A DNA stretch of 64,000 nt, taken from positions 1-64,000 of the forward strand of contig JAHFUQ010000002.1 of assembly GCA_023265045.1 (NCBI GenBank), in the 5' to 3' direction. This document shows, piece by piece, positions 22,918 to 52,149 of this stretch. The DNA is from Acidimicrobiia bacterium (GTDB taxonomy: Bacteria; Actinomycetota; Acidimicrobiia; Acidimicrobiales; AC-14). The notes beneath the pieces were generated by a model, which searched no databases, had not been told where the DNA came from, and worked only from the letters and a program-made list of their open reading frames with translations. The position numbers and the translations under genes were made by a program. The first letter of the stretch is position 1. Each line of letters opens with the position of its first letter.

Positions 22918-23598
22918 ATGCCCGCACCGCATGCGCCGTGGTCGCTCACCGGCGAGTGCGTACTGGCGTGGGCTCGCGGGCGAGGTCCGCACGGGAGCGA
23001 GCTGCCGGCCGATCTGCGGGCGTTGCCCGGGCCGTGCTGGGTCACGGCCGCCCGCTTCGAGACTTCGCCGGTGGGCCCGTACCTTGAGTTCGCCGTGAGC
23101 GAGCCCGCGCGCCTCGGGGCGCGGCCGGGGATGTGCGTGACGACGATGGTGGTCGACTCGCCGGACTCCCGTGTCGGCGGGCGCATGAACTGGGGCTTTC
23201 CCAAGGAGCTGGGCAAGCTTGTCTGGGAGGCGTCTGGTGACGAGCGGACCCTGACGTGGGAGGAGCGGGGCTTGCGGGTGCGCGCCGTGCCGGGCGGGCC
23301 AGCGGTGCCCGTGTTCCTCCCCATGCGCGCGTTGCAACGGCGCGCCGACGGGATGGTCGTCGTCCCCGCCCGGCTTCGCGGCCGGGCCCGAGTCAGCCGC
23401 ATCGAGATCGAGACGGCCGAGGACGACCCCCTCGGCGGCCTCGCCGGTCCCCACCGCGGTCTCCTCGTCGCCGGCCTCAAGCTCGTCGTCGACCCCGCCC
23501 GCCGCCCCCACGGCTTCGCCGCCACCCTCCGTGCCCCGCTGCGAGCGCCCGAGCCTGCACTATCGTTGGGCGGTCACAACGGCCATCGGGGCGATTAG
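22918..23598 (+). CDS. Acetoacetate-decarboxylase-like (ADC superfamily) protein
   Basis: 226 aa. The ADC-superfamily signature is visible in the middle: TTMVVDSPDSRVGGRMNWGFPKELGKLVWE, where the Lys of GFPKEL aligns with the Schiff-base lysine region of acetoacetate decarboxylase. A classical decarboxylase also needs a paired Glu set that I cannot confirm, and many actinobacterial homologs have unknown substrates. The gene ends in TAG at 23596-23598, inside the D-arm of tRNA-Val, so the CDS overlaps the tRNA gene by 10 bp. It is the last chromosomal gene before the island. Confidence 0.75.
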   Translation: MPAPHAPWSLTGECVLAWARGRGPHGSELPADLRALPGPCWVTAARFETSPVGPYLEFAVSEPARLGARPGMCVTTMVVDSPDSRVGGRMNWGFPKELGKLVWEASGDERTLTWEERGLRVRAVPGGPAVPVFLPMRALQRRADGMVVVPARLRGRARVSRIEIETAEDDPLGGLAGPHRGLLVAGLKLVVDPARRPHGFAATLRAPLRAPEPALSLGGHNGHRGD

Positions 23599-23660
23599 CT
23601 CAGCGGCAGAGCGCTGCCTTCACACGGCAGAGGTCGGGGGATCAAAACCCTCATCGCCCA
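23589..23660 (+). tRNA. tRNA-Val (anticodon CAC), integration site of the island
   Basis: 72 nt cloverleaf: acceptor GGGCGAT/ATCGCCC plus discriminator A, D stem GCTC/GAGC, anticodon stem CTGCC/GGCAG with loop TTCACAC (CAC reads GUG, Val), 5-nt variable region, T stem GGGGG/CCCTC. CCA is not encoded. The T loop is ATCAAAA instead of the near-universal TTCRANN, so T54 is A. All four repeat copies of the 3' half keep this A, suggesting the current 3' half was supplied by an integrating element. Confidence 0.93.
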
Positions 23661-23661
23661 C
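23616..23661 (+). repeat. Att-like 46-bp direct repeat, copy A (inside tRNA-Val)
   Basis: Runs from the anticodon arm to one base past the discriminator. Copy B at 36329 differs at 1 of 46 positions, copy C at 50403 at 4, and copy D at 51870 at about 8. This is the expected attL of the integrated element; the integrase gene starts 32 bp away. Confidence 0.9.
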
Positions 23662-23693: not shown

Positions 23694-24860
23694 CTAGGCT
23701 AATGGCACTGACGCCGATTCACCCCGCGAAAACCCCGCGGGATTTTTCGACACTGGCAGTGCGAGGAGGTCACCGGCGGGCTCTGGCGGTGTCTTGGCGA
23801 AGCCGTCCAGGGCCGCCAGCACCGCCTCCTCGTGGCCCGGCAGGAGGTGCCCGTAGCGGTCGAGGACGAGCGCGACCGAGGTGTGCCCGGCCCATGTTGC
23901 GATCTGCTTGGGGCTCGCGCCGGCGGCGATCCAGAGCGAGACCGCCGTGTGGCGAAGGTCGTGCGGGCGCAGCGGAGCGAGGCGCGCTGCTTTGATCGCC
24001 GGCTGCCAATGCCGAGCACGCCACGCGTTGACACGGAGCGCGCCGCCGTCGGCTCCGGGGAAGACGAGATCATCCGGGCCTCCGCTTGAGAAGCGGCCGA
24101 GGTGCTCTGCAAGCGCGCTCGCAACCGACGCCGGGACCGGCACGGTGCGGTTGCCGGCGGAGGTCTTCGGTGCGTTGAAGATCAGCTCGCCCTTCACCTC
24201 GACGGCCGTCTCGATCACACGGACCTGGCGGCGAAGCAGGTCGACGCGGCCGCAGCGGAGACCGGCCAGCTCGCCCATTCGGAGACCGCAGTACCCGTCG
24301 AAGATCACCATCGCTCGATAGCGGGCGGGCATGGCGTCGGCAAGGGCGACGATCTCGCCCGGCGTCAGGAACCGCATCTCTTCTCGCTCGATCCTGGGAA
24401 GGTCGACGTTCCGGCACGGTGACTGAGCGATGAGGTCGCCGTCGACCGCAGCGCGCATGACCTTGGCGAGCGTCTGGTACGCCTTGTGGACAGTGGCTGG
24501 CGCGAGGCCCGACGCCGTCAGGTCGGCGACCCACGCGCGTACGTCAAGCTGCGAGATGCGTCCCAAGGCGTGGGTGCCAAACGCCGGCAGGACGTGGTTG
24601 CGCATGTACGACTCGTCGCGTGCTCGCGAGGACGGGCGGAGGTTCACGGTCGTCGCCCACCACCGCTCGACCCATTCGTCGAGGCGAGTGCGCGCTTGCA
24701 CGGGGTCGCGCCAGTCGCCGCGCTGCACGTCTGTGCCGACCCTCTCCAAGAAGCGCACGGCCTCTCGCTTGGTCGGGAAGGTCTGGCACCGCTCCCGCCC
24801 GTCGGGAGCCCGATAACGGGCCTCCCAGCGGCCGCTGGGGGCCTTCCGAACGTGACTCAT
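23694..24860 (-). CDS. int: Tyrosine recombinase (phage-type site-specific integrase)
   Basis: 388 aa from ATG 24860 (GGGAAGG SD); the 445-aa track start is upstream of it. N-terminal AP2-like DNA-binding segment (RKAPSGRWEARYRAPDGRERCQTFPTKREA), SAM-like core-binding domain (TTVNLRPSSRARDESYMRNHVLPAFG), and catalytic domain with GLRMGELAGLR (Arg), RPHDLRHTAVSLWIAAG (HxxR), WAGHTS (His) and LDRYGHLLPG (Tyr nucleophile). All R-K-H-R-H-Y elements appear present, so it should be active. It faces the tRNA, with its 3' end 33 bp from attL, the usual arrangement for tRNA-targeting elements. Confidence 0.95.
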   Translation of the reverse strand: MSHVRKAPSGRWEARYRAPDGRERCQTFPTKREAVRFLERVGTDVQRGDWRDPVQARTRLDEWVERWWATTVNLRPSSRARDESYMRNHVLPAFGTHALGRISQLDVRAWVADLTASGLAPATVHKAYQTLAKVMRAAVDGDLIAQSPCRNVDLPRIEREEMRFLTPGEIVALADAMPARYRAMVIFDGYCGLRMGELAGLRCGRVDLLRRQVRVIETAVEVKGELIFNAPKTSAGNRTVPVPASVASALAEHLGRFSSGGPDDLVFPGADGGALRVNAWRARHWQPAIKAARLAPLRPHDLRHTAVSLWIAAGASPKQIATWAGHTSVALVLDRYGHLLPGHEEAVLAALDGFAKTPPEPAGDLLALPVSKNPAGFSRGESASVPLA

Positions 24861-24924
24861 GTCGCCACCTTCCCTGAGGCAGTACGGCGATTGTACCGGC
24901 GGGCGGTGACAGCCCACCGCGCGC

Positions 24925-25161
24925 TCAAAGCCGCGGCGGCCTACGCGCGTTGTCGATCCATGCCTCGATCTCGCTCGGGTCGAACCGCAAAAGATGCCCC
25001 CACTTGACGAGCGGAATTCGCTCCTCGGCAACGAGGCGTCGGACGTGCCGCACCGTTACGCCGAGTCTTGCGGCGACCCAGTTGATGTCGACGAGTTCTT
25101 TCTCTGAGGTCGCCCCACGAGCCACTGATCTCCTCGATCGGGCTGCTTGGCCGTTCATCAC
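24925..25161 (-). CDS. xis: Excisionase-like helix-turn-helix (MerR-like/Xis) protein
   Basis: 78 aa. DINWVAARLGVTVRHVRRLVAEERIPLVKWGHLLRFDPSEIEAWID is the standard 'helix-turn-helix, excisionase family' (HTH_17) winged helix. The N-terminal 20 residues are basic and unstructured. It lies 64 bp upstream of int in the same direction. Such proteins bind near att sites and bias the integrase toward excision. Two adjacent ATGs (25161 and 25158) are possible starts. Confidence 0.88.
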   Translation of the reverse strand: MMNGQAARSRRSVARGATSEKELVDINWVAARLGVTVRHVRRLVAEERIPLVKWGHLLRFDPSEIEAWIDNARRPPRL

Positions 25162-25557: not shown

Positions 25558-28500
25558 GTGGCGTGGATGCGGATGATGGGCGTCGACTCGGTCGAGTACC
25601 ACCGTGCCACGGTGCTCGCGCGCGGTGACGACCACCCCGGCCAGGCCCTCGCGTACTACGCCTCGCGAGGCGAGACGCCGCTCGTGTGGGGCGGCGCGGG
25701 AGCCCGCGGCCTCGGCCTGACCGGCGCCGTCACCGACGAGCAATACGAGGCGATCTACGGCCCGGGCGGGGCGTGCGACCCGACCACCGGCGAGCGTCTG
25801 GCCCACACCCGCCGTCCCGGGCTGGAGCTGGTGATCTCGGCCCACAAGTCCGTCGCCGAGCTGGGCGTGGTGGGACGGGCCGAGCACATGCACCAGATCA
25901 TGGACGCCGAGCGCGACGCCACCCTGGCCTACCTCGACGAGCTGACCCAGCGGGTGGGCGGCCGGCGCGGCGCGCAGGCGACGCGCGTCGGCGCCGAGGG
26001 CCTCGTCTACGCCACGGCCCGCCACGCCACCAGCCGCGCCGGCGACCCCTGCCCGCACGACCACGCGCTGGTGGCCAACGTTCTGCGCATGGACGACGAC
26101 GGGGGATGGAAGGCGGCCGACACCGCGCTCTGGCGCGAGCACCTGCACGCCGCCACCATGGCGGGGCGGATGGCGTCGGCGGCCAAGGCGGTCGAGCTGG
26201 GCTACGCCGTCGTCGCCGACCCCGGCCCCACGGGACGCCTCGGGCACTGGGCGGTGGCCGGCGTTCCCGACGAGGTCATGGACGTCCACTCCAAGCGGGC
26301 GGCGGAGATCCAGGCCGAGGTGGAGCGCACCGGCCACGACTCCTACCAGGCCCGCAACGTGGCCGCACGCGCCACCCGGGACCCCAAGCGCCACACGCCG
26401 GTGGGCGAGCTGATGGGCCGGTGGACGGCCGAAATCGAGGCGACGGGCTGGAGCGTCGAGGACCTGCGGGCCACGATCGACGCCGCAGCCCGGACCTGGG
26501 AGCCGCCCCGGCCATGGCTCCGAGACGACGAGCTGCGGCAGGCGGTGGCCGAGGCCCTCGCCCCCGACGGCCCCCTGGCGGCCCGCAAGGTGTTCTCCCG
26601 CCGGGACGTGGTGGTGGCCGTCGCCCCGTCGCTCTACGGCCGCCGGGCGTCGGAGCTGGAGCGGGTGGTCGACGCCACGCTGGCCCACGCCGAGGCCGTC
26701 CCATTGCTGCGGGTGGCGGGGGCGATCGAGCGCCCCTACGCCACCGCGACCACCATCGCCAGGGAGCAGGCGATCGCCGCCGAGGTCGACGCCCTGGCCC
26801 GGCGGGCCGACGCCCCGGCCGTGTCCCGGCCGGACGCGTGGGCGGCGCTGGCCCGGGGCCAGGTGGCGCTGGGCCGCCCCTTCACCCCCGGGCAGCGGGA
26901 GGCGGTGGAGGCGGCCCTCACCTCGGGCCGGGGGGTGGACCTGGTCGTCGGGGTGGCGGGCTCGGGCAAGACCACGGCCCTGGCCGCCGTCCGGGACGGC
27001 TTCGAGCGGGCCGGCTACCAGGTCATCGGGGCCTCGACGTCGGGTCAGGCGGCCCGCGCCCTGGGCCGCGAGGCGGGCATCGAGGAGAGCCGCACGCTGG
27101 CGTCGCTGCGCGGGCGGCTGGAGCGGGGGACGACCGCCCTCGGACCGCGCCACGTGGCCATCCTGGACGAGACGGCCATGACCGACGACGCCGACCTGCT
27201 CGCCTTCTTGGCCGCGGCGCGGGAGGCGAGGGCCAAGGTGGTGCTGGTGGGCGACCACCGCCAGCTCTCCTCCGTCGGCCCCGGCGGCGGCTTCGAGGCC
27301 CTGCTGCGCCGCCACCGCGACGCCGTGCACGTGCTCGGGGAGAACGTCCGCCAGCGGGACCCCGGTGAGCGGGCCGCCCTGGAGCGACTGCGGGCGGGCG
27401 ACGTGGCCGAGGCGGTGGAGTGGTGCGCCGCCAACGGACGGATCGTGGCCGCCCCCGACCGGGAGGCCGCCCTCGACGCCGCGGTGGCGGGATGGGCGGC
27501 CGACGTGGGCGTCGGCGCGCACACCGCCTTGTACGCGTGGCGGCGGGCCAACGTCGCCGATCTCAACCGCCGGGGCCGGGCGGAGTGGGACGCCATGGGC
27601 CGGCTGTCGGGCCCGGAGCTGGTCGCCCCCGGCGGCGCCGCCTACCGGGCCGGCGACCGCATCGTCACCCTCGCCCCCGGCCAGCGGGGCAAGAGCGTGA
27701 CCTCGGAGTGCGGGACCGTGCTGGCCGTCGACGTCCGCCGGGGCGAGCTGGCGGCGGTGATGGACGACGACGGCCGGGTCGTCCATTTCGGCGGCGACGA
27801 GGTCGACGGCGATCATCTGGCCCACAGCTACGCCGTCACCGTCCACCGGAGTCAGGGATCGACGGTGGAGCGGGCCCACGTCCTGGAGGACGGCGGCGGC
27901 CGGGAGCTGGCCTACGTGAAGATGAGCCGGGCCAAGGAGCGCTCCGTCGTCTACGCGGTGGCGGACGACCACGAGCAGGCGGTCGAGGACCTCGTCCGGG
28001 GCTGGTCGTCCTCCCGCCGGCTGCGCTGGGCCATCGACACGGGAATCCCGGCGCCCGAGCTCGAGGAGGCCGTCGCGCGCACGCCCGGCCTCGACCCCAG
28101 GACGGCGGCGGCGCTGCGCCGCGGGCGGCTGGTGGCCGAGCGCGACGCCGTCGTGGCCGCCGCGCCGGCGGACTGGCGGCCGCGGGTCATGCGCAACCTC
28201 GACGAGATCCTGGACCTCGGCCGTCGGCGCGACGACCTGGCACGCGGGACGGGCCGCTACGCCGACACCCCGGCCGGGGAGGCGGCGAGAGACCTGGCCG
28301 CGGCCACGCGCCGCCGCGAATGGGAGGAGCGCATGGCCGCGTCGCCGACGACGTCGCGATGGAGGCGGCGGTCCCACGCCCGGGAGGCGGAGGCGTGGGG
28401 CGGCCGCGAGGTGGAGGCCAAGAGCCGCTGGGAGCGCCTGGCCGGGCCCGAGCTGGCCCGCCTGGGCGTCGAGGAGGCGACGCTGCGCAGGGCCGACGAG

Positions 28501-28713
28501 GCGTTGCGCAACGGCGTGCGGATCCGCGGCGACTGGCTGGAGCAGCACCCCGAGGCGGCCCGGCGCGTCGCCCGCCTCGAGTCGGAGATCGATCGCCTGG
28601 AGCGGGTCATCGACCCGGAGGCGGCCACGATGGCGCAAGAGGTGGGCCGGACGCCGTGGGCCAGGGCGCCGGAGCGGGCTCACGTGCTCGAGGGTCCCGT
28701 GCTCGAACTGTGA
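25558..28713 (+). CDS. TrwC/TraA-type relaxase-helicase (MOBF)
   Basis: 1051 aa. The first 300 residues are a TrwC relaxase domain: N-terminal Tyr candidates (Y14 region; AYYASRGE), and the three-His metal motif HATSRAGDPCPHDH (about 158-170) that binds the cation used to nick oriT. Residues about 435-860 form an SF1B (RecD-like) helicase with Walker A GVAGSGKTTAL (about 467), Walker B ILDETAMTDD, GDHRQLSSVG, and VHRSQGSTVERAHV. The C-terminus is Arg/Glu-rich and helical. GTG 25558 is the track start; ATGs at 25567, 25573 and 25576 are equally possible. Nicks and unwinds the element for transfer. No partner T4SS genes are nearby. Confidence 0.9.
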   Translation: MAWMRMMGVDSVEYHRATVLARGDDHPGQALAYYASRGETPLVWGGAGARGLGLTGAVTDEQYEAIYGPGGACDPTTGERLAHTRRPGLELVISAHKSVAELGVVGRAEHMHQIMDAERDATLAYLDELTQRVGGRRGAQATRVGAEGLVYATARHATSRAGDPCPHDHALVANVLRMDDDGGWKAADTALWREHLHAATMAGRMASAAKAVELGYAVVADPGPTGRLGHWAVAGVPDEVMDVHSKRAAEIQAEVERTGHDSYQARNVAARATRDPKRHTPVGELMGRWTAEIEATGWSVEDLRATIDAAARTWEPPRPWLRDDELRQAVAEALAPDGPLAARKVFSRRDVVVAVAPSLYGRRASELERVVDATLAHAEAVPLLRVAGAIERPYATATTIAREQAIAAEVDALARRADAPAVSRPDAWAALARGQVALGRPFTPGQREAVEAALTSGRGVDLVVGVAGSGKTTALAAVRDGFERAGYQVIGASTSGQAARALGREAGIEESRTLASLRGRLERGTTALGPRHVAILDETAMTDDADLLAFLAAAREARAKVVLVGDHRQLSSVGPGGGFEALLRRHRDAVHVLGENVRQRDPGERAALERLRAGDVAEAVEWCAANGRIVAAPDREAALDAAVAGWAADVGVGAHTALYAWRRANVADLNRRGRAEWDAMGRLSGPELVAPGGAAYRAGDRIVTLAPGQRGKSVTSECGTVLAVDVRRGELAAVMDDDGRVVHFGGDEVDGDHLAHSYAVTVHRSQGSTVERAHVLEDGGGRELAYVKMSRAKERSVVYAVADDHEQAVEDLVRGWSSSRRLRWAIDTGIPAPELEEAVARTPGLDPRTAAALRRGRLVAERDAVVAAAPADWRPRVMRNLDEILDLGRRRDDLARGTGRYADTPAGEAARDLAAATRRREWEERMAASPTTSRWRRRSHAREAEAWGGREVEAKSRWERLAGPELARLGVEEATLRRADEALRNGVRIRGDWLEQHPEAARRVARLESEIDRLERVIDPEAATMAQEVGRTPWARAPERAHVLEGPVLEL

Positions 28714-29009: not shown

Positions 29010-32000
29010 ATGGCAAAGCAGTCGAAGAGACGCGCCCACGCGACCCAGTGGAGGTCCCGGTTCCGGCCTTGCGCCGTCCTCGCCATCGTCGCCACTCTTT
29101 GTTCGTTGCCGGTCATCGTCGTCGCGGGACCCGCCTCGGCGGCGACTACAGCTCCCGCGACATCGCCGAACTCGCCCGCCAGTCCGGCCGCCAAGCTGCC
29201 CACCCCTGGCCCCGCCACGCTGCCGGCCCCCGCAGGCGCCCCCAACCCGGCGACGCCGAGCGCCCTCGTGGCCGCCGACGTCAAACTCCCGGGACTCCCG
29301 GCCTCGGCGCCGAAGGTGGCCACGAGCGACAGCTACACCGCCTTCACCCACACCGCCACCCACAACGACGGCTCCGCCACCGTCGAGGTCAGCGCCAAGC
29401 CCGCCCACTACCAGGACGCCAAGGGCGTCTGGCACGACGTCGACACCACCCTTGTGGCGGCCGCCGACGGCGCCTACGTCGCCAAGGCGGCCGCGACCTC
29501 GGCCAAGGTGGCGGCCCACGCGGGGTCGGCGAGCGTCAACGTCCCCACCAAGGCGGGCGCGATCGCGGCGGGTCAGTCGGCGGCCGCCCCGGTCGCCGCC
29601 ACTGTGGCCGGCGACCAGGCCAGCTTCAAGGGCGCGCTGGGGGCCAACGACGTGGCCGAGAAGGTCACCGCCGACGGCTACGAGGAGACGATCACAATCG
29701 CCGCCCCCGGCGGGCCGTCGTCCTACACCGACCAGTTCACGCTGCCGGCGGGCGTGACAGCCCGCAACGGGGGCCTCGGCGTCGAGTTCGTCGACTCGTC
29801 GGGCTCGGTCGTGGCCAGCTTCGGCGGGGTGAAGGCCGAGGACTCGGCCGCCGGCCCGTCGGGCGGCGCGGTCGCGCCGGGCACGGCCCGCGTCGCCACC
29901 ACGAACGGGAACGTCGTCACCGTGGACGTGTCCGTCGACGCCGCGTGGGCGTCCGACCCGGCCAGGGTCTACCCGATCTCCCTCGACCCGACCATGACGA
30001 CGATCTACACCGACGGCTCCTCCTCCTACGACGGCTACGTGGACGGCGACTACCCGACCTCCAATTACGGCTGGACCGACCCCGAGCTGGCCGCCGGCTA
30101 CGCGGGGCCGGCCTCGTCGGGCGGCTCCTACGCCCGCACCCTCCTCTACTTCGCCCTCGGCGGCCTGGCGGGCTCGGGGGCGGCGGTGTCGGAGGCCCAC
30201 CTCGCCGTCGACAACCAGCACTCGTGGGTGTGCAACCCGCCGGGGTCGCAGATCAACCTCGTGGGCGTGGCGTCGCACTTCGACTTTTCGACGACCTGGA
30301 ACACCCAGCCCGGCCTGGACGGCTACGCGTACACGACCAGCGCCCCGTTCTCCTTCGGCGACACCTGTGGCGGCGCCGGGTGGGTGAACCTGGACGCCAC
30401 CGCCCTCGTCCAGCGCTGGCTCAACGTCGGCGGCGAGGCCAACAACGGCCTCGAGCTGAACGGCGTCTACCAGGGCGACGAGATGAACAACTACGGCTGG
30501 AAGGAGTTCTGGTCCGAGCGCGGCGGCCCCGCCCCCGCCCTGGTCGTCAACTACACGCCCGCCGCCGTCCCCGGCCCGCCGACCAACGTGGTCGCCACCG
30601 TCGGCAACGCCACCGCCACCGTGAGCTGGGTGCGCCCGGCCAACGCCGGCACCCCGGCCCTCGACGGGTACTACCTCTACGCCTACAACTACCCCGCCAT
30701 GACCCTGGCGGGCTCGGCCGTCGTGGGCTCGGGGACGACCAGCTCGACGGGGCCCGCCACCAACGGCCAGGCCTACGTGTGGGCCGTCTACGCCCACAAC
30801 GCCAAGGGCTTCAGCCCGGCGGCGTGGTCCAACGTGGTCACCCCCGCGGCGCCGCCGAGCACGCCCCAGAACGTCGTCGGCAACGGCGGGAACACGGCCG
30901 GGGCGGTGCGCTGGGCCCCGCCGGCCTCCAGCGGCGGGGTGCCCGAGGACCTCTACCTGGTCGCCCTCTACGACCTGGGGACGAATCCGGCGACGCTGGT
31001 GAGCTACTTCACCGTGTGCGGCACGTGCACGTTCACCCCCTATCCCGGGCTGGTGAACGGCCACGCCTACGAGTACGCGGTGTGGGGCCACAATGGGCCC
31101 GGCGGCTACGGGCAGCCGTCGCTGTCCAACATCTTCTCCTCCTCGGCCGCCGACCCCATGGCGGGGGCGGGCGACCGCTCCTACTTCAGCTACCAGAGCT
31201 TCGCCCTTGACGACCGGATGGCGGGCAAGGTGAACATCGGCACCGGCGACCTGCAGGTGTCCATGACCGACCTCGCCGTGCCCATGGTGGGCGGGGGCCT
31301 GTCCCTCACCCGCACCTACAACAGCATGGAGGCGGCGCTGGGGGCGCGCGTCGACTACTCCGGCCAGTTCGGCTACCTGTGGTCGTCCAACCAGACCCCC
31401 GACGTGCGTCTGGTGCCCACGCCGGACCCGGGCACGGTCATGATCGTGTCGCCCACGGGCGGCGCCGCCATCTTCGTGGGGACGGCGGGAGCGAGCTCGA
31501 CCGCCTACACGACGCCGCCGGGCCTGGACTCCACGCTGGCCCGCAACGCGACCGACGGGACCTACACGCTCACCGTGCACGCCAGCCAGGAGGTCCTGCG
31601 CTTCGGGGCCGACGGGCAGCTCCTGTCCGACACCGACGCCAACGGCAACGCCCTGACCTTCACCTACGCCGACGGACGGCGGGAGGCCTCCATCGTCGGC
31701 ACGGCCGGCTCCTCCCCGGGGAACACGATCAGCTTCGTCTACGGCGGCCCGGCCGGCCAGATCTCCTCGGTCTCCCAGACCGCCGCCGACGTGGCCACCC
31801 GCACCGTGAGCTACACGTACAACCCCTCCAACGACGCCATCAACCAGGTCACCGACCCCAGCGGGCGGGTCACGACCTTCCAGTACGACGCCAACAACAA
31901 CCTGTCCAAGATCACGGTCAAGGCCAACTCGACCGCCCCCGACTACCAGGTGACCACCTTCGGCTACGACTCGTCCCACCGGGTCACGTCGGTCGACCGG

Positions 32001-34445
32001 GCCATCTCCAACCCGACCCAAGCCGACGCCGTCTGGCGCTACGACTACTCGACGCCGGGCCAGACCAAGGTCACCGACGCCGACGGGCACCCGCCGGTGG
32101 TGTACGCGATCGACGGGTTCGGGCGGGCGACGTCGGTCGCAGACCCCAAGAACGCGCCCAAGGCGGCGACGACCACATTCACCTCGGATTACAAGGTGGC
32201 CACGGTCCAGGGCGCGACGAACTGGGGGACCGGCCTGAAGACGGTCAACGATTGGTCCGCCAACGGCGGGGAGAGCCTCACGAGCAGCACGAACCCGATC
32301 CTGGCGGTGACGGCGAACACGTTCCTCGGGCCGATGGCGTACTTGGCGGACAAGTCCGACGACTCCATGGACCACTGGACCAAGTTCACGTACGGCCCGA
32401 ACGTCAACACCCTCACGGCCACCGACCCCGTCACCGGCGCGATGGCGATCACCCTCCACAACCCCGACGGCACCGTCGCGCTCTCGGCCGACCCCAACAA
32501 CACGACACAGACGGACCCCCTGCACCCCGAGACGCAGCCGCCGGCCAAGTCGACGACGTTCGCGTACTTCCCCACGCACCAGCTCTCCACCGTCACCCCG
32601 CCGACGGGCAACTCCCTCGCCACACAGAGCTTCACCTACGACGGCGTCGGCCGGCTGAAGACGGCCCGCAGCGGCAACGGCGTGACAACCACGTACACCT
32701 ACGACGCCCTCGACCGGGTGAGCGGTGAGACCTTCAGCGACGCCACGCACGCGGTGACCCTCGGCTACGACACGCTGGGGAACCCCAGCACCCGCTCGGA
32801 CGCCTCGGGCCAGACGTCGTGGTCCTATGACACCGCCAACCGCCTGCAGACCAAGACGCTCCCTGGCGGCGCGCAGCTGATCTACCAGTACGACTCCGTC
32901 GGCAACCTGACGTTCGTCAACGACGGCGGCGTGATCACCCGTTACCAGTACGACAAGGTCAACGAGCTCGACCAGGTGCTGGAGCCCTCCGGCCGCTACG
33001 ACGTCTTCGCCTACGACGCCGACCACCGCCGAACGGACACCTGGTACGGGACGCCCGCCGGCGTCGTCTACGACGCCAGCGGCAACAACGTCGTGGCCCC
33101 GGCGTCCTTCGCCGCCCACATCCACAGCGCCTACGATCCCGCCGGCAACCTGGCGGAGATCCGGACCACACGGGCGAGCTCGGACGCCCCCGCCAACCGA
33201 CTGGCCGACATCTCCTACGCCTACATCGTGCCCGGCGGCTCGACCTGCGCCACCGCCGGCAAGGTGACCACGCTGCGGCAGACCTCCACCGACGTGATCA
33301 CGAACGCGGTCACGTCCTATTGCTACGACTCGGCCGGGCGCCTCACCCAGGCGGCCGCCGCCGGAGGGCCGACCTACACCTACGTGTACGACCGAGACGG
33401 CAACCGCATCCTGGACGCGGCGGGCACGCACACCTTCAACACCGCCAACCAGCTCACGGACACGGGCTACGTCTACGACCCCGACGGGAACCTGACGGCC
33501 TCCCCGGCGATCTCGGCTCTGGCCTACAACGGCGTCGACCAGACCACGTCCATGACCAAGGCCGGAATCCCGAGCAGCTTCGCCTACGCAGGCACGGGCC
33601 AAGCGGAGCGCACCTCCGCCGGCTCCACGACGGCCCAGAACGGCGCCTTGGGCGTGGAGACCGAGACCACGGCAGGGGCCACGACGACCTACGTGAGGGA
33701 TCCGTCGGGAACGCTCATCTACGAGCACACGCCGGCGGCGGGGGACTTCTACTACTACTTCGACGGGCTGGGCTCGGTCGTCGGGCTCGTCAACCCGGCG
33801 GGCCAGCAGCGGGCGGCGTACACTTATGACCCCTACGGTTCAAACGCCACCGCCACCGCCGTGAACGGATCCCTTCCGTCCAACCCCTGGCGCTTCACGG
33901 GCGGCTACTTCGACGCCGCCACCGGCTTGTACCACCTCGGGGCCCGGTACTACGACCCTACGACCGGCCGTTTCACGCAACCCGAGGGGACTGGCTACCT
34001 CTACGTGGGCGACAACCCCGTCAACGGCACGGACCTCTCCGGAGCCAAGAAGAAGAAACTGAGCCCGGACGAGGAGGCGCGGGTCGCTGCGACCATCGAT
34101 GGCTGTGTGAACACGCCAGACATCGCGTACTCGAATTCATCCTTCTGCATCAACTTCATCACGGCATGGAGCCAGGGAGATCTCACTGACTACGGCTTCG
34201 GGTTTGTACCGAAGGGATCCAGTAAGTGTTCGTCGTTTCTGCGGACCGCAGCGGGCCTTCTTGGTGTCGGCGGATACGCCCGGGCCGCGCAGGATGCCGC
34301 AAAGGGCAACTACTCGGGTGCCGTGAAGGAGGTGGTTGGCACAAAGTGGATCAGCGGTCGGGAGGCCTTCTTCCTTGGTCGGATGGCCACGCCCCTTTCA
34401 TTGGTAGCGACGGCCGTGGATTCCGCCTGTTCCATTAACCCATAG
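29010..34445 (+). CDS. Secreted RHS/YD-repeat protein with variable C-terminal tip (polymorphic toxin candidate)
   Basis: 1811 aa from ATG 29010. Signal peptide (AVLAIVATLCSLPVIVVAGPASA), Ala/Thr-rich segment, DNRLRE-type domain (about 330-515; GDYPTSNYGWTD, FDFSTTWNTQP, WLNVGGEANNGLELNG), two FN3-like domains (about 515-715), a DUF6531-type entry (GDLQVSMTDLAVPMVGGGLSLTRTYNS), many YD repeats, and the RHS-core end RFTGGYFDAATGLYHLGARYYDPTTGRFTQPE...YVGDNPVNGTDLSGA (about residue 1673). After the core, about 135 residues are unrelated in style: KKKKLSPDEEAR, four Cys, and Gly/Ala-rich possibly membrane-active helices (TAAGLLGVGGYARAAQ, ATPLSLVATAV). RHS cores encapsulate a cleaved C-terminal toxin, so this tip is the presumed effector. 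No known nuclease or deaminase motif is visible. Confidence 0.9.
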   Translation: MAKQSKRRAHATQWRSRFRPCAVLAIVATLCSLPVIVVAGPASAATTAPATSPNSPASPAAKLPTPGPATLPAPAGAPNPATPSALVAADVKLPGLPASAPKVATSDSYTAFTHTATHNDGSATVEVSAKPAHYQDAKGVWHDVDTTLVAAADGAYVAKAAATSAKVAAHAGSASVNVPTKAGAIAAGQSAAAPVAATVAGDQASFKGALGANDVAEKVTADGYEETITIAAPGGPSSYTDQFTLPAGVTARNGGLGVEFVDSSGSVVASFGGVKAEDSAAGPSGGAVAPGTARVATTNGNVVTVDVSVDAAWASDPARVYPISLDPTMTTIYTDGSSSYDGYVDGDYPTSNYGWTDPELAAGYAGPASSGGSYARTLLYFALGGLAGSGAAVSEAHLAVDNQHSWVCNPPGSQINLVGVASHFDFSTTWNTQPGLDGYAYTTSAPFSFGDTCGGAGWVNLDATALVQRWLNVGGEANNGLELNGVYQGDEMNNYGWKEFWSERGGPAPALVVNYTPAAVPGPPTNVVATVGNATATVSWVRPANAGTPALDGYYLYAYNYPAMTLAGSAVVGSGTTSSTGPATNGQAYVWAVYAHNAKGFSPAAWSNVVTPAAPPSTPQNVVGNGGNTAGAVRWAPPASSGGVPEDLYLVALYDLGTNPATLVSYFTVCGTCTFTPYPGLVNGHAYEYAVWGHNGPGGYGQPSLSNIFSSSAADPMAGAGDRSYFSYQSFALDDRMAGKVNIGTGDLQVSMTDLAVPMVGGGLSLTRTYNSMEAALGARVDYSGQFGYLWSSNQTPDVRLVPTPDPGTVMIVSPTGGAAIFVGTAGASSTAYTTPPGLDSTLARNATDGTYTLTVHASQEVLRFGADGQLLSDTDANGNALTFTYADGRREASIVGTAGSSPGNTISFVYGGPAGQISSVSQTAADVATRTVSYTYNPSNDAINQVTDPSGRVTTFQYDANNNLSKITVKANSTAPDYQVTTFGYDSSHRVTSVDRAISNPTQADAVWRYDYSTPGQTKVTDADGHPPVVYAIDGFGRATSVADPKNAPKAATTTFTSDYKVATVQGATNWGTGLKTVNDWSANGGESLTSSTNPILAVTANTFLGPMAYLADKSDDSMDHWTKFTYGPNVNTLTATDPVTGAMAITLHNPDGTVALSADPNNTTQTDPLHPETQPPAKSTTFAYFPTHQLSTVTPPTGNSLATQSFTYDGVGRLKTARSGNGVTTTYTYDALDRVSGETFSDATHAVTLGYDTLGNPSTRSDASGQTSWSYDTANRLQTKTLPGGAQLIYQYDSVGNLTFVNDGGVITRYQYDKVNELDQVLEPSGRYDVFAYDADHRRTDTWYGTPAGVVYDASGNNVVAPASFAAHIHSAYDPAGNLAEIRTTRASSDAPANRLADISYAYIVPGGSTCATAGKVTTLRQTSTDVITNAVTSYCYDSAGRLTQAAAAGGPTYTYVYDRDGNRILDAAGTHTFNTANQLTDTGYVYDPDGNLTASPAISALAYNGVDQTTSMTKAGIPSSFAYAGTGQAERTSAGSTTAQNGALGVETETTAGATTTYVRDPSGTLIYEHTPAAGDFYYYFDGLGSVVGLVNPAGQQRAAYTYDPYGSNATATAVNGSLPSNPWRFTGGYFDAATGLYHLGARYYDPTTGRFTQPEGTGYLYVGDNPVNGTDLSGAKKKKLSPDEEARVAATIDGCVNTPDIAYSNSSFCINFITAWSQGDLTDYGFGFVPKGSSKCSSFLRTAAGLLGVGGYARAAQDAAKGNYSGAVKEVVGTKWISGREAFFLGRMATPLSLVATAVDSACSINP

Positions 34446-34462
34446 AGATATGTAGGTGTAAG

Positions 34463-34642
34463 ATGATGAAGATCCTCCAGGCCTTCTTGCTGTTCGCTAT
34501 ATCGACGCTGTTGTTGGGGACCGTGGCCTACGTTCTGAAGGCGCAGGACCTTGGTGCATCGCTCTCAGAAACCTTTATAGTCATGGGGATCTTCAGTGCA
34601 ATTGGAACGGTCGTTCGATATATCATCTCAGAAGACGACTAA
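34463..34642 (+). CDS. Tiny two-helix membrane protein after the RHS tip (immunity candidate)
   Basis: 59 aa, absent from the ORF track because of its length. ATG 34463 (a second ATG at 34466) lies 17 bp after the RHS stop with TAGGTG upstream. Sequence pattern: one helix (ILQAFLLFAISTLLLGTVAYVL), a short KAQDLGAS turn, a second helix (TFIVMGIFSAIGTVVRYII), and an acidic end (SEDD). In RHS systems the gene right after the tip usually encodes the cognate immunity protein, and a membrane-embedded one would fit a membrane-targeting toxin. Base composition is lower in GC than its neighbours. Inferred from position. Confidence 0.6.
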   Translation: MMKILQAFLLFAISTLLLGTVAYVLKAQDLGASLSETFIVMGIFSAIGTVVRYIISEDD

Positions 34643-34728
34643 GGGCACCGCCCACCTAACGAGAGCGAGGGGTTGGTTGATGATCTCGCTGCTGCCCTCG
34701 AACGGGCCTTGGCCACCAATGGTAGCGG

Positions 34729-34845
34729 ATGACTTCGCACATTCTTAAGATCCTTGGTGGGATCGCCTGCGTGGTGATCGTTGTGGTCGCCCAACTCATA
34801 AAGACCAACCGCTGGCCGCCGCGGCGATACCCACGTAAGGACTGA
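34729..34845 (+). CDS. Very small single-helix membrane protein
   Basis: 38 aa from ATG 34729, not in the track. Pattern: short start, one helix (ILGGIACVVIVVVAQLI), then a basic tail (KTNRWPPRRYPRKD), i.e. N-out/C-in by the positive-inside rule. It lies in the cluster of tiny ORFs after the RHS gene. Without an SD of quality it could be a remnant of a longer immunity gene. Confidence 0.35.
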   Translation: MTSHILKILGGIACVVIVVVAQLIKTNRWPPRRYPRKD

Positions 34846-34994
34846 CGACCGAAGCAAGCTAGGCAACAAATGGCACCCGACTTCGGCCGTGAATCGGTCG
34901 TCGTTCCTTCTCCGGCGGACGGGATTGACTGGAAAGAGTTGGCGACGGCATCGTCCTCGCTGAGACGGATTTAGGATCACACACTGGATGGTCC

Positions 34995-35189
34995 ATGAGG
35001 ACAAAAGCGTGGCCCGCGCTGGAGGGCTTACTGTTGGGCACTGGGATCGCGCTGACGAGCTATTACTCTGATGTCGACCCATGGTTCTATCACCATGCCA
35101 TCTTGTCGACGTTTTGGGGCGCGTTCTTCGCAGCCGCCGTTTTCCTCGTTCGATCGAAGCGATGCCGAAATCGTCGCAGCTCTCAATGA
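34995..35189 (+). CDS. Small two-helix membrane protein
   Basis: 64 aa. Two hydrophobic segments (LEGLLLGTGIALTSYY and AILSTFWGAFFAAAVFLV) joined by DVDPWFYHH, with a basic tail (RSKRCRNRR). Size and topology resemble the 34463 and 35452 proteins, though without clear sequence identity. Probably another member of the immunity-like pool. After it, another frame reads DAEIVAALNDPWIGGSTLSR, protein-like but with no start. Confidence 0.45.
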   Translation: MRTKAWPALEGLLLGTGIALTSYYSDVDPWFYHHAILSTFWGAFFAAAVFLVRSKRCRNRRSSQ

Positions 35190-35451
35190 CCCATGGATCG
35201 GCGGATCGACTCTCAGCCGATTGTTCGATTCGCTGCTTGCTAGCGAGTAGGCTCGTTAGCCAAAAAGCGCGTGGCGAGGGACGGACGGATCGGCGACTTG
35301 GCAGGACCCGACCCGCGAACGTCAATATCCCAGGAAATGTCCGAGCAACTGCGTCGAGCGTGGCCAACCACCACCGTCGAACGGGCACTTGGTACGCGAA
35401 CTCGTTACGGCGCCATCTTACACGATGCCAGCGCCAACGGCGTCGACGCCT

Positions 35452-35646
35452 ATGAGCTCCTTCGACCGCCTGAGTATCTGGTGGCGATTTCTTCTCGGGG
35501 TCGTCATCCTCGGGCCTTTGGTTTACGCCCTTAAAGCTCGTCAACGGGGCTACTCGATTTGGGCAAGTCTGATCGCCGCTGGCGTGTTCAGCGCAGCTGT
35601 GCTGACGCTCGAGGCAATCGTGCGGCGCTACCGGAGCCGAGACTGA
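35452..35646 (+). CDS. Small two-helix membrane protein, distant paralog of the 34463 protein
   Basis: 64 aa from ATG 35452 (the 85-aa track start at 35389 adds an unlikely leader). Two helices: WWRFLLGVVILGPLVYAL and SLIAAGVFSAAVLTLEAIV, then RRYRSRD. The segment YALKARQRGYSI...GVFSA matches YVLKAQDLGASL...GIFSA of the 34463 protein at the same position between the helices, so the two appear homologous. A second copy far from an intact toxin tip suggests a displaced toxin/immunity cassette. Confidence 0.5.
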   Translation: MSSFDRLSIWWRFLLGVVILGPLVYALKARQRGYSIWASLIAAGVFSAAVLTLEAIVRRYRSRD

Positions 35647-36328
35647 CGTTTTCGCCCGATTGGTTTCCTCCAAGCCATCGGCGATGGCGGCCTGTTGCCG
35701 GCCGGATTGGTTTGCAAACGGCTCGGCAGGTTGACTCGCCATGGTTCGGCGGCAAACGATGGTCACTTTGCCGAGCTCGGGTATACGAGCGACCCCGGCC
35801 CCGAAGGAACCGGCGTCGAACGGCCGCAGGAGATCCTGATCAATCGCGTGTGAGGGCCGTCGGCAACCTGCCGGACGCGCTGGTTCGCCGGCAGCCGGGA
35901 CTGCCCGGACCGGTGCCTACGTGTCTTCCTGCCAACGAGGCCGGCGCCGGCCAGCCGGAGCGCCGCGGTAGACGACTCCCGGGAAGCGTCGATGCTGAGG
36001 CCCCTCGAGCAGACCGGAGAGGAGAATTGTCACGCTCGACCCGGTGTGCGCTGCTTCCTCCTCGAGCCCCCTTGGGGGAGGTCTGCCGGCAAACAGAAGG
36101 AGGTCGGTCGCACCATGGCGTCTTGTAGTAGGGGGGTTGCGCCACGTGTAGCGCACCACGGGCGGGACCACGGGATGAGAACAAGTCTCAACACAGGCCT
36201 CCGCACCCCGCGGATACCCCGCGGAATTTCGGAGAACGGCGGCGAATGTCGGTCATCGGCGGACAAGGAAAATGGCCTCTGACCTGCTATGTCGCGCTTC
36301 AAACGCACGTCAGAGACTCGGGCAATTG
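35647..36328. other. Gene-poor right end of the mobile element
   Basis: 682 bp with no supported gene. One frame (about 35682-35852) reads a protein-like string ending SDPGPEGTGVERPQEILINRV but has no start, so it may be the tail of a degraded effector or immunity cassette. The 189-aa track ORF here is Arg/Pro-rich and probably spurious. At 36204-36230 CACCCCGCGGATACCCCGCGG resembles the DNA at the very end of int (23718-23740), a possible shared integrase arm site. Confidence 0.4.
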
Positions 36329-36374
36329 GCCTTCACACGGCAGAGGTCGGGGGATCAAGACCCTCATCGCCCAC
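36329..36374 (+). repeat. Att-like 46-bp direct repeat, copy B (attR of the element)
   Basis: 45 of 46 bases match copy A in tRNA-Val. Only the anticodon-arm-to-3'-end part is present, as expected for an attR made by integration into a tRNA 3' end. The bases after it (to about 36520) resemble those after copy D with conserved spacing. Confidence 0.88.
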
Positions 36375-38059: not shown

Positions 38060-41000
38060 CTAGGGCAATGGTCGGCTGGGGCGGATCGCAATCGTCGTGA
38101 CGGCCCGGTCGACTCGCTGGAGCACCGCCGCCGAGCTCGGCGCGAAGTATCCGTCCCCGGCGTAGCGGGCCGTCACCGGCCCGGTTCCGGGCAGCCGCGT
38201 GACCCAAGGGGCCGACCCCTGCCCCACGGCGTTCAGGTTGATGGTGGCGATGACGGTGTCCTCCGACGCGACGACCACCGAGCCGGTGGGAACGCCGGCG
38301 CCGCCCCCGCCCACTTCGACGGTGATTTGGACCGGCTCGCCGAAGGACGAGGGATTGGGCCGGCACGCGAGCGTGGTGGTCGTCGGGACCCGCACGACCA
38401 GGGTGAGCGCCGCACCGGCGGGGGCGAAGTTCTCGTCGCCCTCGTAGGCCGCGGTCACCGCGACGCTTCCGAGTCCGAGACACGACGCCGTCATGAGCGC
38501 TTGACCGACCTCGTCGAGCGCCAGAGCGTCCTCGATGTCGCCGCCAATCGAGAGCCGCACCGTCCCGGTCGGTCTGGCGACGCCGTCGGGACCCCGCACG
38601 GTGACGACGAGACCCACCGGTTGGCCCAGCGTCGCCGGGTTTTCCGAAGCCGCCAGCGCGACGGCGGGCGTCGCCCGCTCGACGGTCTGCGTGAGCGACG
38701 CGGAACTCGGTTCGAACCGCTCGTCGCCCGAGTACTCGGCGGTGATGAGCTGCGTACCGGCGCCCAGCGACGACGTCGTGGCCTGGGCGACGCCCTGCTC
38801 GTCGACGCCGACTTCGGCCAGGCACGTGGGGCCGTCCGAGAACGTCACCTGCCCGGTCATGCCGCCACCTGTGGCCGAGCCGACGGTGGCGACGAAGGTG
38901 ACAGCCTCGGCATAGACGGAGGGATTGACCGAGGATTCCGCCGCGCCGGCCGGCGCTTGCTCGGCCTCCGCCGGCGGGGTGTCGTCGGCCCGCTCGACAT
39001 CCCTCGGAGCCGACCCCGCGGCCCGAGCCGACGTAGCGAGCGCCGGCCGGCGTACACCCCGGAAGCGGGCCAAGCGCAGGCTGTTGGACACGACCGACAC
39101 GCTGGAGGTGGCCATGGCCGCGCCCGCGATGATCGGGTTGAGAAGGCCGGCTGCGGCCAGGGGGATGAGGGCCACGTTGTAGCCGAAGGCCCACCCGAGG
39201 TTCTGCAGGATGGTTCGGAACGTCCGGCGCGACAACAGGATGGCCGTGGCCACGCCGTCGAGGTCGCCCGACAGCAGCGTGATGTCGGAGGACTCGATGG
39301 CGACGTCGGTCCCGGTCCCGATGGCGATGCCCAGGTCGGCCGCCACCAGCGCGGGGGCGTCATTGATCCCGTCGCCGACCATGGCCACCACCCGCCCCTC
39401 GGCCTGCAGGCGACGGACCTCGCCGACCTTGTCGGCGGGGAGGACCTCCGCCAGGACGCGTTCGATGCCGAGCGCGGCCGCGATCGACTCCGCCGTGGCC
39501 CGGTTGTCGCCGGTGATCATGGCCACGCCCACGCCGAGGCGCCGGAGGGCGTCGACCGCGCCGGGCGCGTCGTCCCTGACGGTGTCGGCCACCGCCAGCA
39601 CTCCTCGGACCCGGCCGTCCCACCCGGCGAAGACCACGGTGCGGCCTTCGGCCTCCAGGGTCGCGGCCGCGTCCTCGAGCTCCGGGTCGATGGCCAGGCC
39701 CGCTTCGGCGGCGAGCTTGCGCCGTCCGACGTGGACCATGACCCCTTCCACCATCGCCCGCACGCCGTGGCCCGCGACGGCGGAGAAGGCGGTGGCGGCG
39801 AGCACGGGGACGGCTCGCTCCCGGGCGCCGTCGACGATGGCGCGGCCCACCGGGTGCTCCGACCCCGCCTCGACGGCGGCCGCCCTTCGCAGCAGCTCGC
39901 CCTCATCCACCCCGGCGCCGACCACCATGTCGGTGAGGGCCATCTCGCCCTTTGTCAGGGTGCCGGTCTTGTCGAACACGATGGTGTCGATGCGCTTGGA
40001 GCGCTCCAGGACCTCGCCGCCCTTGATCAACACGCCCATGGATGCGCCCCGGCCGGTGCCGACGAGGATGGCGGTGGGGGTGGCCAGGCCCAGGGCGCAC
40101 GGGCAGGCGATGATCAGTACGGCCACGGCCGCCACCAGTCCCTTGGTCGGGTCGCCCTCGATGAGCCACCACCCGGCCAGGGTGCCCACGGCGATGAGGG
40201 CCACCACTGGGACGAAGACGCCCGAGATGCGGTCTGCCAGCCGCTGCACCGGGGCCTTGGCGCCCTGCGCCTGCTCGATGAGGCTGACGATCTGGGCCAA
40301 GGCGGTGTCGGCGCCCACGGCGCTGGCGCGCACCGTGAGCACGCCGTGGGTGTTGAGGGTGGCGCCCGCCACCTTGTCGCCCGGGCCCTTATCGACCGGC
40401 GCCGACTCGCCGGTGAGCATGGACTCGTCCACGGCGGACGAGCCGTCGGTGACGACGCCGTCGACCGGGACCTTCTCGCCCGGGCGCACCCGCACCACGT
40501 CGCCGAGGCGCACCGCCTCGACGGGCACGGTCCGTTCCTCGCCGTCCACGACGAGACGGGCCTCCTTGGCCCCCAGCTCGAGGAGCTTGCGGATGGCGCT
40601 CGACGCCTTCCCCTTGGCCCGCGCCTCGAAGTACCGGCCCAGCAGGAGGAACGCGATGATCAGCGCCGAGGAGTCGAAGTAGAGGTCCGAGTGCGGGCGC
40701 CCGAGGGCCACCTGGTAGGTGGAGAACCCGAACGCGGCCAGCGTGCCCATGGCGATGAGCGTGTCCATGCTGGCCTGGAGGGCCCGAGCCCGCATGGCGG
40801 CCTGGCGAAGGAACGGCCAGCCCGCCCAGAACTGGACCGGGAGGGTGAGGGCAAAGGCGCTCCAGCGGGCCCACGGCCGGTGCATGTACAGCATCGACAG
40901 CACCAGCACGGCGATCCCGAGCGGCCAGGCCACGAGCACACGCCGCAGCCACATCGACTGCACGCGGGCCTCGGCGTCGCCCTCGTCGGCCTGCGCGTCG

Positions 41001-41260
41001 GTCTGCAGCGGCGTGAGGGCGTAGCCGATCTTGGCGGTCGACGCGACCAGGTCCTCGACCGACACCTTCGAGGCGTCGTAGCGGACGCTGGCGCGGGCCA
41101 CGGCGAAGTTCACGTCGGCCTGCGTCACCCCGGGCTGTTTGGCCAGGGTGCGCTGCACTCGCGCCGCGCACGAGCCGCACGTCATGCCCGAGACGGTCAG
41201 CTCCAGCTCCGTCAGGTCGTCGGTGGGCGACTGCCCCCGTGCCGCCGTGTGCTGGCTCAT
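38060..41260 (-). CDS. copA: Copper P1B-type ATPase (CopA) with C-terminal Ig-like repeats
   Basis: 1066 aa; known CopA proteins are about 700-830 aa. N-terminal HMA domain [11 protein letters not shown] (about 25-31), TM helices, actuator ([13 protein letters not shown]), ion-binding CPC helix [14 protein letters not shown] (about 387), phosphorylation site [10 protein letters not shown] (about 428), HP motif [18 protein letters not shown] (about 629), and the last TM pair ([33 protein letters not shown]), ending about residue 730. This set is CopA-1 for Cu(I) export. An acidic linker then leads to about 280 residues of three Ig-like (Big_3/5-type) repeats: [12 protein letters not shown]...[18 protein letters not shown], ...[18 protein letters not shown], ...[14 protein letters not shown]. 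Starts in an ATGA overlap with csoR. Confidence 0.93.
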
Positions 41261-50402: not shown

Positions 50403-50448
50403 GTCTTCCCACGGCAGAGGTCGGGGGATCAAATCCCTCATCGCCGAC
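50403..50448 (+). repeat. Att-like 46-bp direct repeat, copy C
   Basis: Matches copy A at 42 of 46 positions. Bases after it (ACTGTAAGATCGCAGG) resemble those after copy A (ACTGTAAAAGTCCTGG), i.e. the integrase-side end of the element. A tRNA-like ORF on the minus strand (EGFDPPTSAVG) is an artefact of this remnant. Confidence 0.82.
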
Positions 50449-51521: not shown

Positions 51522-52149
51522 TGGGCTCGTTCCCGCGTGCGGCAAGCAGCTTGACGGTTGGGGTTGAGGGGTTTCCGCATTGCGCGAGCGATCCGGCGCT
51601 TTCGCTCGTTCTCGGCTCGGCGCTTCCTCAACCACGACGGTCGCAATCGCTTGCGGCGTGAACGCGGGCCGGTCGATACTGCACCAACTGTCGCTCTGGC
51701 CCGGTGACACCTGCCGTGCAGTAATGGCGCGGAAATGGCGCGAAACCAAGGGCAAGGATAGGCAGATTGGCATACCGACGGACGTGGGGTCAGCGCCGCA
51801 ACCTGCGAGAACACGTCCGTTGAGCGCCGTTGACAACCCTTCTGCACACCCTGTTCCACGCGGAACTCAGTCTTCACACGGCAGAGGAACGCGGATCAAC
51901 ACCCCGATCGCCCACACAAAATCTGTCCACAGACAACCGAGTGAGCAGAAGTTGAGAGTCGTTCCCGGAACCTGCGGGTAGCAATGGCCATCGACAGACA
52001 TCCGCGCGGGCCTCGGTGCATGAATCCGAGCGAACGCTGCCGTGCGTGAGTTGAGGTCGCGGCCGGTTTCGGTAGGGCAACAGCAATTCAACCAACTCCC
52101 GTTACACGGTTGAGGTCGGAAATAGGCGCCCGGCGCGGCGACTCTGGAC
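51522..52149. other. Decayed element end around repeat copy D
   Basis: No supported gene. Contains 51705-51765 (homologous to the left flank of copy C), an internal repeat ATGGCGCGGAAATGGCGCG (51724-51742), nearly identical to 50520-50538 after copy C, and repeat copy D. Right of D the sequence to about 52060 is homologous to the right flank of copy B. The ABC-permease stop is at 52150. Confidence 0.6.
51870..51915 (+). repeat. Att-like 46-bp direct repeat, copy D (outer island end)
   Basis: About 38 of 46 positions match copy A; changes cluster in the T-arm (GAACGCGG for GTCGGGGG). Oldest-looking copy; the probable distal junction of the island with the chromosome. Confidence 0.75.

What the first reader, a model, noticed from the sequence alone, without database searches (positions are those of the whole stretch)
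33990..35646. RHS toxin tip followed by a pool of tiny membrane proteins
After the RHS core the last 135 residues are a tip I cannot match to known toxin classes, with Gly/Ala-rich helices. It is followed at once by a 59-aa two-helix protein and then three further tiny membrane-protein ORFs (38, 64, 64 aa), some missing from the ORF track. Immunity proteins that live in the membrane usually guard against membrane-active toxins. A novel pore-forming or membrane-disrupting RHS effector with several immunity genes, carried on a mobilizable element, would be a new system.
Basis: inference. Interest (0 to 1): 0.78.

Follow-up and report, generated by a model that had tools for sequence, protein, structure and literature searches.

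The report
Mobile RHS toxin with membrane partners
A secreted bacterial weapon protein carries a swappable, cysteine-framed tip that probably attacks cell membranes and is followed by a tiny two-helix membrane protein that probably protects its owner, and the pair rides on a DNA element inserted at a tRNA gene; the principle is known from other bacteria, but the tip family is new.

Summary
Window 29010-34445 encodes an 1811-aa RHS protein whose last 133 residues (34044-34445) match no Pfam, NCBIfam, PHROG, PADLOC or PDB sequence. A 59-aa two-helix hairpin follows 17 nt later (AlphaFold2 pLDDT 81). The last small ORF (64 aa, 35452-35646) is its paralog. The 38-aa ORF and the other 64-aa ORF have no homology support.

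The tip has four homologs, all RHS tips, in three genera of one taxonomic family. The intact ones share a four-cysteine frame, a polar N-half and a Gly/Ala-rich, more hydrophobic C-half. Three of the four precede related 3-TM proteins. A related element at the same tRNA-Val site in another genus has a 66%-identical core up to residue 1678, then an unrelated tip and a different small membrane gene: cassette swapping.

The locus is a ~12.7-kb element: tRNA-Val, integrase, TrwC relaxase, RHS, small ORFs, 45-bp att repeat.

Best reading: a membrane-acting polymorphic toxin with an integral-membrane immunity protein, in the manner of Tse5/Tsi5 and CDI ionophores but unrelated in sequence. Pore formation is inferred. 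This copy lacks one aspartate of the RHS self-release protease, so it may not release its tip.

The parts
23589..23661 (+). tRNA-Val (cac), insertion site of the element; its last 45 nt (23617-23661) are the left att copy
   Evidence: ARAGORN; direct repeat D1; comparison of copies
23694..25031 (-). tyrosine integrase of the element
   Evidence: Pfam Phage_integrase 1.5e-17
25558..28713 (+). TrwC/MobF-type relaxase-helicase, 1051 aa
   Evidence: Pfam TrwC 6.4e-49, AAA_30 3.3e-53
29010..34445 (+). RHS protein, 1811 aa, with an N-terminal signal-peptide-like hydrophobic segment, DUF6531 and RHS/YD repeats
   Evidence: signal peptide read from sequence
33825..34043 (+). RHS-associated core (C-terminal plug). 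The first DPxG of the release-protease motif is missing here (QPEGTGYLYV where a relative reads VDPVEGGSCNGYDYV)
   Evidence: TIGR03696; comparison with relatives
34044..34445 (+). tip, residues 1679-1811: four-Cys frame (residues 1699, 1713, 1740, 1807), polar N-half, Gly/Ala-rich C-half; predicted membrane-acting toxin
   Evidence: homologs by profile, Cys positions and hydropathy, sharp boundary with a relative at residue 1678
34463..34642 (+). 59-aa two-helix membrane hairpin, predicted cognate immunity protein
34729..34845 (+). 38-aa single-TM ORF; status as a gene uncertain
   Evidence: no relative found
34995..35189 (+). 64-aa ORF with one TM segment; status as a gene uncertain
   Evidence: no significant relative
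35452..35646 (+). 64-aa two-helix paralog of the 59-aa protein, predicted orphan immunity gene (longest ORF starts TTG 35389)
36330..36374 (+). right att copy: 45 nt of the tRNA-Val 3' end with one mismatch

Best explanation
This is a polymorphic toxin-immunity pair carried by an integrative mobilizable element. The RHS protein is exported, probably by Sec, and its shell presents or delivers a C-terminal tip of about 133 residues (shown: RHS shell and tip boundary; inferred: export and delivery). The tip is one of a small family built from a polar N-half and a Gly/Ala-rich, moderately hydrophobic C-half framed by four conserved cysteines (shown). It probably inserts in, or acts at, the cytoplasmic membrane of a competing relative and collapses its membrane potential (inferred). 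The 59-aa hairpin that follows sits in the owner's membrane and blocks the tip there (inferred); its 64-aa paralog is an orphan immunity gene kept against a related toxin (inferred). Tip and small membrane gene are exchanged together as a cassette behind a conserved RHS core (shown by comparison at the same tRNA-Val site in another genus).
For: Tip without enzyme or family match. Homologous tips found only behind RHS cores, in three genera of one family. The tips have almost no invariant polar residue besides Cys, which argues against an enzyme active site. Four-Cys frame in all intact copies; C-half GRAVY 0.23-0.98 against -0.19 to -1.08 for the N-half. Partners: three of the four homologous tips precede mutually related 3-TM proteins of about 91-108 aa (E=6e-8 and 3e-6); the fourth has a 66-aa 2-TM ORF at +295; the window has the 59-aa hairpin at +17. 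Small membrane partners are enriched behind RHS genes of this family: 10 of 23 against 49 of 3000 random positions. RHS tips with a membrane partner have more hydrophobic C-halves (p=0.005). Cassette swap: core 66% identical up to residue 1678, then an unrelated tip and a different 3-TM gene.
Against: The window tip has no segment reaching the usual TM threshold (best 19-residue mean 1.17; homologs reach 1.53-1.72). AlphaFold2 gave no usable model of the tip (pLDDT 41.6). In the same taxonomic family a phospholipase-A2-like tip and a DUF6973 tip are also followed by membrane ORFs, so a membrane partner does not prove a pore. One relative of the 59-aa protein stands alone in a genome without a detected RHS core. 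This RHS copy lacks the first aspartate of the release-protease motif; in Tse5 the equivalent mutant D1141A does not cleave or kill (PMC10684867).
Confidence: 0.6

Rival explanations
1. The tip is an enzyme acting at the membrane or cell wall (lipid, lipid II or peptidoglycan), and the small membrane proteins shield the substrate or bind the enzyme there.
For: In the same taxonomic family a PLA2-like tip (Phospholip_A2_3, 1.1e-9) and a DUF6973 tip (3.2e-13) are followed by 4-TM ORFs. The N-half of the tip is polar and better conserved between copies than the C-half.
Against: No enzyme family match; across the five aligned tips only P, C, F and A are invariant, with no invariant His, Asp, Glu, Ser or Lys; the Gly/Ala-rich hydrophobic C-half is the part most like known ionophores.
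Confidence: 0.2
2. The tip is a worn-out or non-toxic end and the small ORFs are unrelated passengers or remnants; the locus no longer works as a weapon.
For: First DPxG of the release protease missing, alone among the family copies compared; the tip is less hydrophobic than its homologs; two of the four small ORFs have no relatives; one homolog is broken by a stop codon and the RHS at the same site in G029 appears split between two frames.
Against: The full 1811-codon frame is open; the four cysteines are kept; the 59-aa partner is intact, close by, and has a paralog.
Confidence: 0.15
3. The tip is a structural or adhesive end, and the small membrane proteins anchor or regulate the RHS protein instead of giving immunity.
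For: Some RHS ends in the same family look like small hydrophilic, possibly beta-rich domains without a membrane neighbour (L034, L038, L041).
Against: The sharp core-to-tip boundary with swapping of both tip and neighbour, and the orphan tip plus 2-TM cassette on contig C48, are the pattern of toxin-immunity cassettes.
Confidence: 0.05

Closest known systems
Tse5/Tsi5 of Pseudomonas aeruginosa (PMC9637101, PMC10684867)
   Same: RHS shell with a C-terminal tip and no enzyme motif; immunity protein with two predicted TM regions; the RHS shell of Tse5 (8cp6) is matched by this RHS protein (4.9e-16)
   Different: Tse5 is delivered by the T6SS; here a signal-peptide-like N-terminus and no T6SS gene in the element were seen. 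No sequence similarity of tips was found; the window copy lacks one release-protease aspartate; pore formation is untested
CDI ionophore toxins CdiA-CT with CdiI (PMC11630599)
   Same: Two-part toxin ends; immunity proteins are small (72-100 aa), very hydrophobic two-helix hairpins; highly polymorphic pairs
   Different: Carried by CdiA, not RHS; no detected homology; the four-Cys frame is not described there in what I read
TspA/TsaI of Staphylococcus aureus (PMC9484751)
   Same: Membrane-depolarising polymorphic toxin followed by a string of paralogous membrane immunity genes
   Different: T7SS substrate; TsaI is a five-TM DUF443 protein with 2-16 copies; here two paralogs of a two-helix protein
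Imm-CdiI and Imm17 immunity families (PMC3482391)
   Same: Two-TM immunity proteins of polymorphic toxins
   Different: No Pfam match of the window proteins to any immunity family
WapA/WapI of Bacillus subtilis (from memory)
   Same: Secreted RHS/YD protein of a bacterium without T6SS, with a variable toxic C-terminus and an adjacent immunity gene
   Different: WapA toxin ends known to me are soluble nucleases with soluble immunity proteins

Membership tests
RHS polymorphic toxins | RHS/YD repeats ending in the RHS-associated core domain | tested here: met
   PF05593 1.9e-33; TIGR03696 58.1 bits over a cut-off of 32.5
RHS polymorphic toxins | Variable C-terminal tip after a conserved core, exchanged between relatives | tested here: met
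   66% identity up to residue 1678, none after, at the same tRNA site in another genus; diverse tips in the family
RHS polymorphic toxins | Aspartyl release-protease motif DPxG-x18/19-DPxG (found in many, not all, RHS proteins) | tested here: not met
   First DPxG absent in this copy; present as DPxxGG...DLxG in most relatives
RHS polymorphic toxins | Adjacent gene gives immunity | not testable with these tools
   Candidate 59-aa gene at +17 nt; needs expression test
Pore-forming RHS toxins (Tse5 kind) | Sequence relationship of the tip to a known pore-forming tip | tested here: not met
   No Pfam, NCBIfam or PHROG match and no PDB match to the tip profile; Tse5-CT itself was not compared directly
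Pore-forming RHS toxins (Tse5 kind) | TM or amphipathic helices in the tip | tested here: inconclusive
   Homologs reach 1.53-1.72 on a 19-residue scale, the window tip 1.17; no usable model
Pore-forming RHS toxins (Tse5 kind) | Membrane depolarisation by the tip, relieved by the immunity protein | not testable with these tools
   Bench assay needed
Two-TM immunity proteins (Imm-CdiI, Imm17, Tsi5 kind) | Small two-helix membrane protein next to a toxin gene | tested here: met
   Hydropathy and AlphaFold2 hairpin
Two-TM immunity proteins (Imm-CdiI, Imm17, Tsi5 kind) | Sequence match to one of those families | tested here: not met
   No immunity family in Pfam or NCBIfam up to E=1
Integrative mobilizable element | Integrase, relaxase, and flanking att repeats at a tRNA gene, no conjugation channel genes | tested here: met
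   Integrase, TrwC, tRNA-Val and 45-bp att repeats; no other long gene in 23.7-36.3 kb

The most novel reading that the evidence does not exclude
A new class of secreted RHS toxins in which a Gly/Ala-rich membrane-inserting domain is framed by conserved disulfide-forming cysteines, one of them near the very C-terminus, paired with miniature membrane immunity proteins, and spread as interchangeable cassettes by tRNA-integrating mobilizable elements. In the order-level sample, tips with a hydrophobic C-half carry a Cys in the last eight residues more often than other tips (19 of 31 against 17 of 70, p=4e-4, exploratory).
Probability: 0.3. Interest if true: 0.6.

Novelty: new variant of a known kind. 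Interest (0 to 1): 0.48.

Why it matters
The characterised membrane-depolarising polymorphic toxins I found come from T6SS, CDI or T7SS bacteria. A four-cysteine tip family with membrane partners, in a lineage with apparently exported RHS proteins and on mobilizable elements, would extend that mode of attack to organisms without those machines and give a simple toxin-immunity pair to test. It would also link RHS weapons to the upkeep and spread of the element that carries them: a cell without the immunity gene would be at a disadvantage beside cells that have it.

Tried and rejected
Pattern scans of genome contigs (two) and viral contigs (one) with two tips found no relative; plasmid records had none for the tip or the two-helix proteins. 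Weak tip hits in other families (L006-L008, L015-L019, L058, L059; E 0.002-0.01) were treated as chance; those translated (L006-L008) are not RHS tips. Homology between the 59-aa hairpin and the 3-TM partners of related tips was tested profile to profile and not supported (probability 2%). The 66-aa ORF behind the G079:C32 tip is not detectably related to the window ORFs. Single-sequence AlphaFold2 of the tip was useless, so no fold search was run. The long minus-strand ORF 34639-35766 and the 124-aa ORF 35081-35455 have no family match and no third-position G+C signal and were taken as spurious. At order level, outside the family, small membrane partners are less common (10 of 78), so the pattern is not claimed for the whole order.
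Full report
What is there. The window carries one RHS gene, 29010-34445, 1811 codons. RHS repeats, DUF6531 and the RHS-associated core (residues 1606-1678) are clear, and the shell region matches solved RHS shells including Tse5 (8cp6, 4.9e-16). The N-terminus reads as an export signal: a basic stretch, a hydrophobic core and an AxA end; this is from the sequence, not from a tool. The tip, residues 1679-1811, has no match in Pfam, NCBIfam, PHROGs or PADLOC, and the profile of its family has none in the PDB. The tip and the small ORFs are 49-60% G+C, against 71% for the RHS core.

The small ORFs. The 59-aa ORF begins 17 nt after the RHS stop. It has two hydrophobic segments and is modelled as a helical hairpin with helices 2-29 and 34-58 (pLDDT 80.7). 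The last ORF, 35452-35646, is its paralog (33% over 58 residues, E=7e-9; also the second hit in the whole genome). The 38-aa ORF and the middle 64-aa ORF each have one hydrophobic segment; I found no significant relative of either. So the 'pool' rests on two related proteins, with two possible further members.

The tip family. A second RHS gene in the same genome (contig C48) has a related tip (E=1e-6 over 55 residues). A profile search of 298 genomes of the order found, beyond two chance-level hits, only five tips in three genera of one taxonomic family: window, C48, G079:C32, G115:C8, and G079:C37, which is broken by a stop codon. The four intact copies share four cysteines at matching places (window tip positions 21, 35, 62, 129), a polar N-half and a more hydrophobic C-half. 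The C-half differs most between copies. Few polar residues are invariant, which does not suit an enzyme.

The partners. The C48, G115 and G079:C37 tips are each followed by a 3-TM protein of about 91-108 aa; these three are related to each other. The G079:C32 tip has only a 66-aa 2-TM ORF, 295 nt downstream. The window has the 59-aa hairpin. The window proteins are not detectably related to the 3-TM group. Related tips thus have membrane partners of different families. Among 23 RHS genes of the taxonomic family, 10 have a small ORF with at least two TM windows within -20 to +60 nt; random positions give 49 of 3000, and 39 long genes gave four, three of which were RHS genes. Outside the family the figure is 10 of 78 RHS genes. 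Contig C48 also holds an orphan RHS end with its own 70-aa 2-TM ORF.

Tip swapping. At tRNA-Val(cac) in another genus (G029:C57) lies a related element: integrase 44%, TrwC 56%, and RHS 46-66% identical to the window's. The identity runs to residue 1678 and stops; the tip and the 112-aa 3-TM gene behind it are different. This is direct evidence that tip and small membrane gene change together behind a conserved core. The G029 RHS appears split between two frames.

The element. Between tRNA-Val (23589-23661) and a copy of its last 45 bp with one mismatch (36330-36374) lie only an integrase, a TrwC relaxase, the RHS gene and the small ORFs, which fits an integrative mobilizable element of about 12.7 kb. 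In the order, an RHS core lies within 12 kb of a relaxase at seven places, this one included, where about one is expected by chance (listed matches only, rough null). Most of these also have an integrase and a tRNA.

How it probably works. The best reading is an exported RHS toxin whose tip attacks the membrane of related competitors, with the 59-aa hairpin as immunity protein. The shown steps are the RHS shell, the tip boundary, cassette swapping, the two-helix partner and its paralog, and the mobile context. The inferred steps are export, delivery, membrane insertion, depolarisation, neutralisation, and disulfide formation. The principle is known: Tse5 is an RHS pore-former with a two-TM immunity protein (PMC9637101); CDI ionophores have 72-100-aa two-helix immunity proteins (PMC11630599); TspA is followed by strings of membrane immunity genes (PMC9484751). 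No sequence link to any of them was found, though Tse5-CT and CdiA-CT were not compared one to one.

Caution on this copy. Relatives carry DPxxGG before the second aspartate of the release-protease motif; the window reads QPEGTG and lacks the first DP. In Tse5 the equivalent mutant D1141A is not cleaved and does not kill (PMC10684867). The window copy may therefore not release its tip, or may do so otherwise.

Verdict. It is a new tip family working, most likely, like known membrane-depolarising polymorphic toxins.

Noticed in passing
window 23617-23661, 36330-36374, 50404-50448, 51871-51915: Four copies of the tRNA-Val 3' end in a row, with 0, 1, 4 and 8 mismatches, as if elements were inserted in tandem; the 36.4-50.4 kb stretch holds metal and arsenic-type genes (copper P-type ATPase, CsoR-like repressor, ArsR-like regulator, MIP channel, LMW phosphatase-like protein).
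   Followed up: partly
window 38060-41260 (-): A heavy-metal P-type ATPase whose C-terminal third consists of three bacterial Ig-like (Big_3_5) domains in the same reading frame, an unusual fusion.
   Followed up: no
RHS loci of the order sample (L020-L147): RHS tips with hydrophobic C-halves tend to end in a cysteine within the last eight residues (19 of 31 against 17 of 70, p=4e-4). Exploratory.
   Followed up: partly
L002, minus strand, about 263-1040: Orphan RHS end cassette downstream of an intact RHS gene, with its own 70-aa 2-TM ORF; by eye both resemble the tip and 77-aa 2-TM ORF at the start of G079:C37 (L020).
   Followed up: partly
L037 and L047: A phospholipase-A2-like RHS tip (G115:C31) and a DUF6973 RHS tip (G079:C16), each followed closely by a 4-TM ORF.
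   Followed up: no
L154 2599-2817 (-): A lone relative of the 59-aa/64-aa hairpins (72 aa) in a genome with no detected RHS core.
   Followed up: partly
L165 (G066:C66), L166, L167, L168: Further integrase, TrwC and RHS groupings beside tRNA-Leu (two copies flanking), tRNA-Ser, tRNA-Arg and tRNA-Pro, suggesting RHS toxins are regular cargo of such elements in this order.
   Followed up: partly
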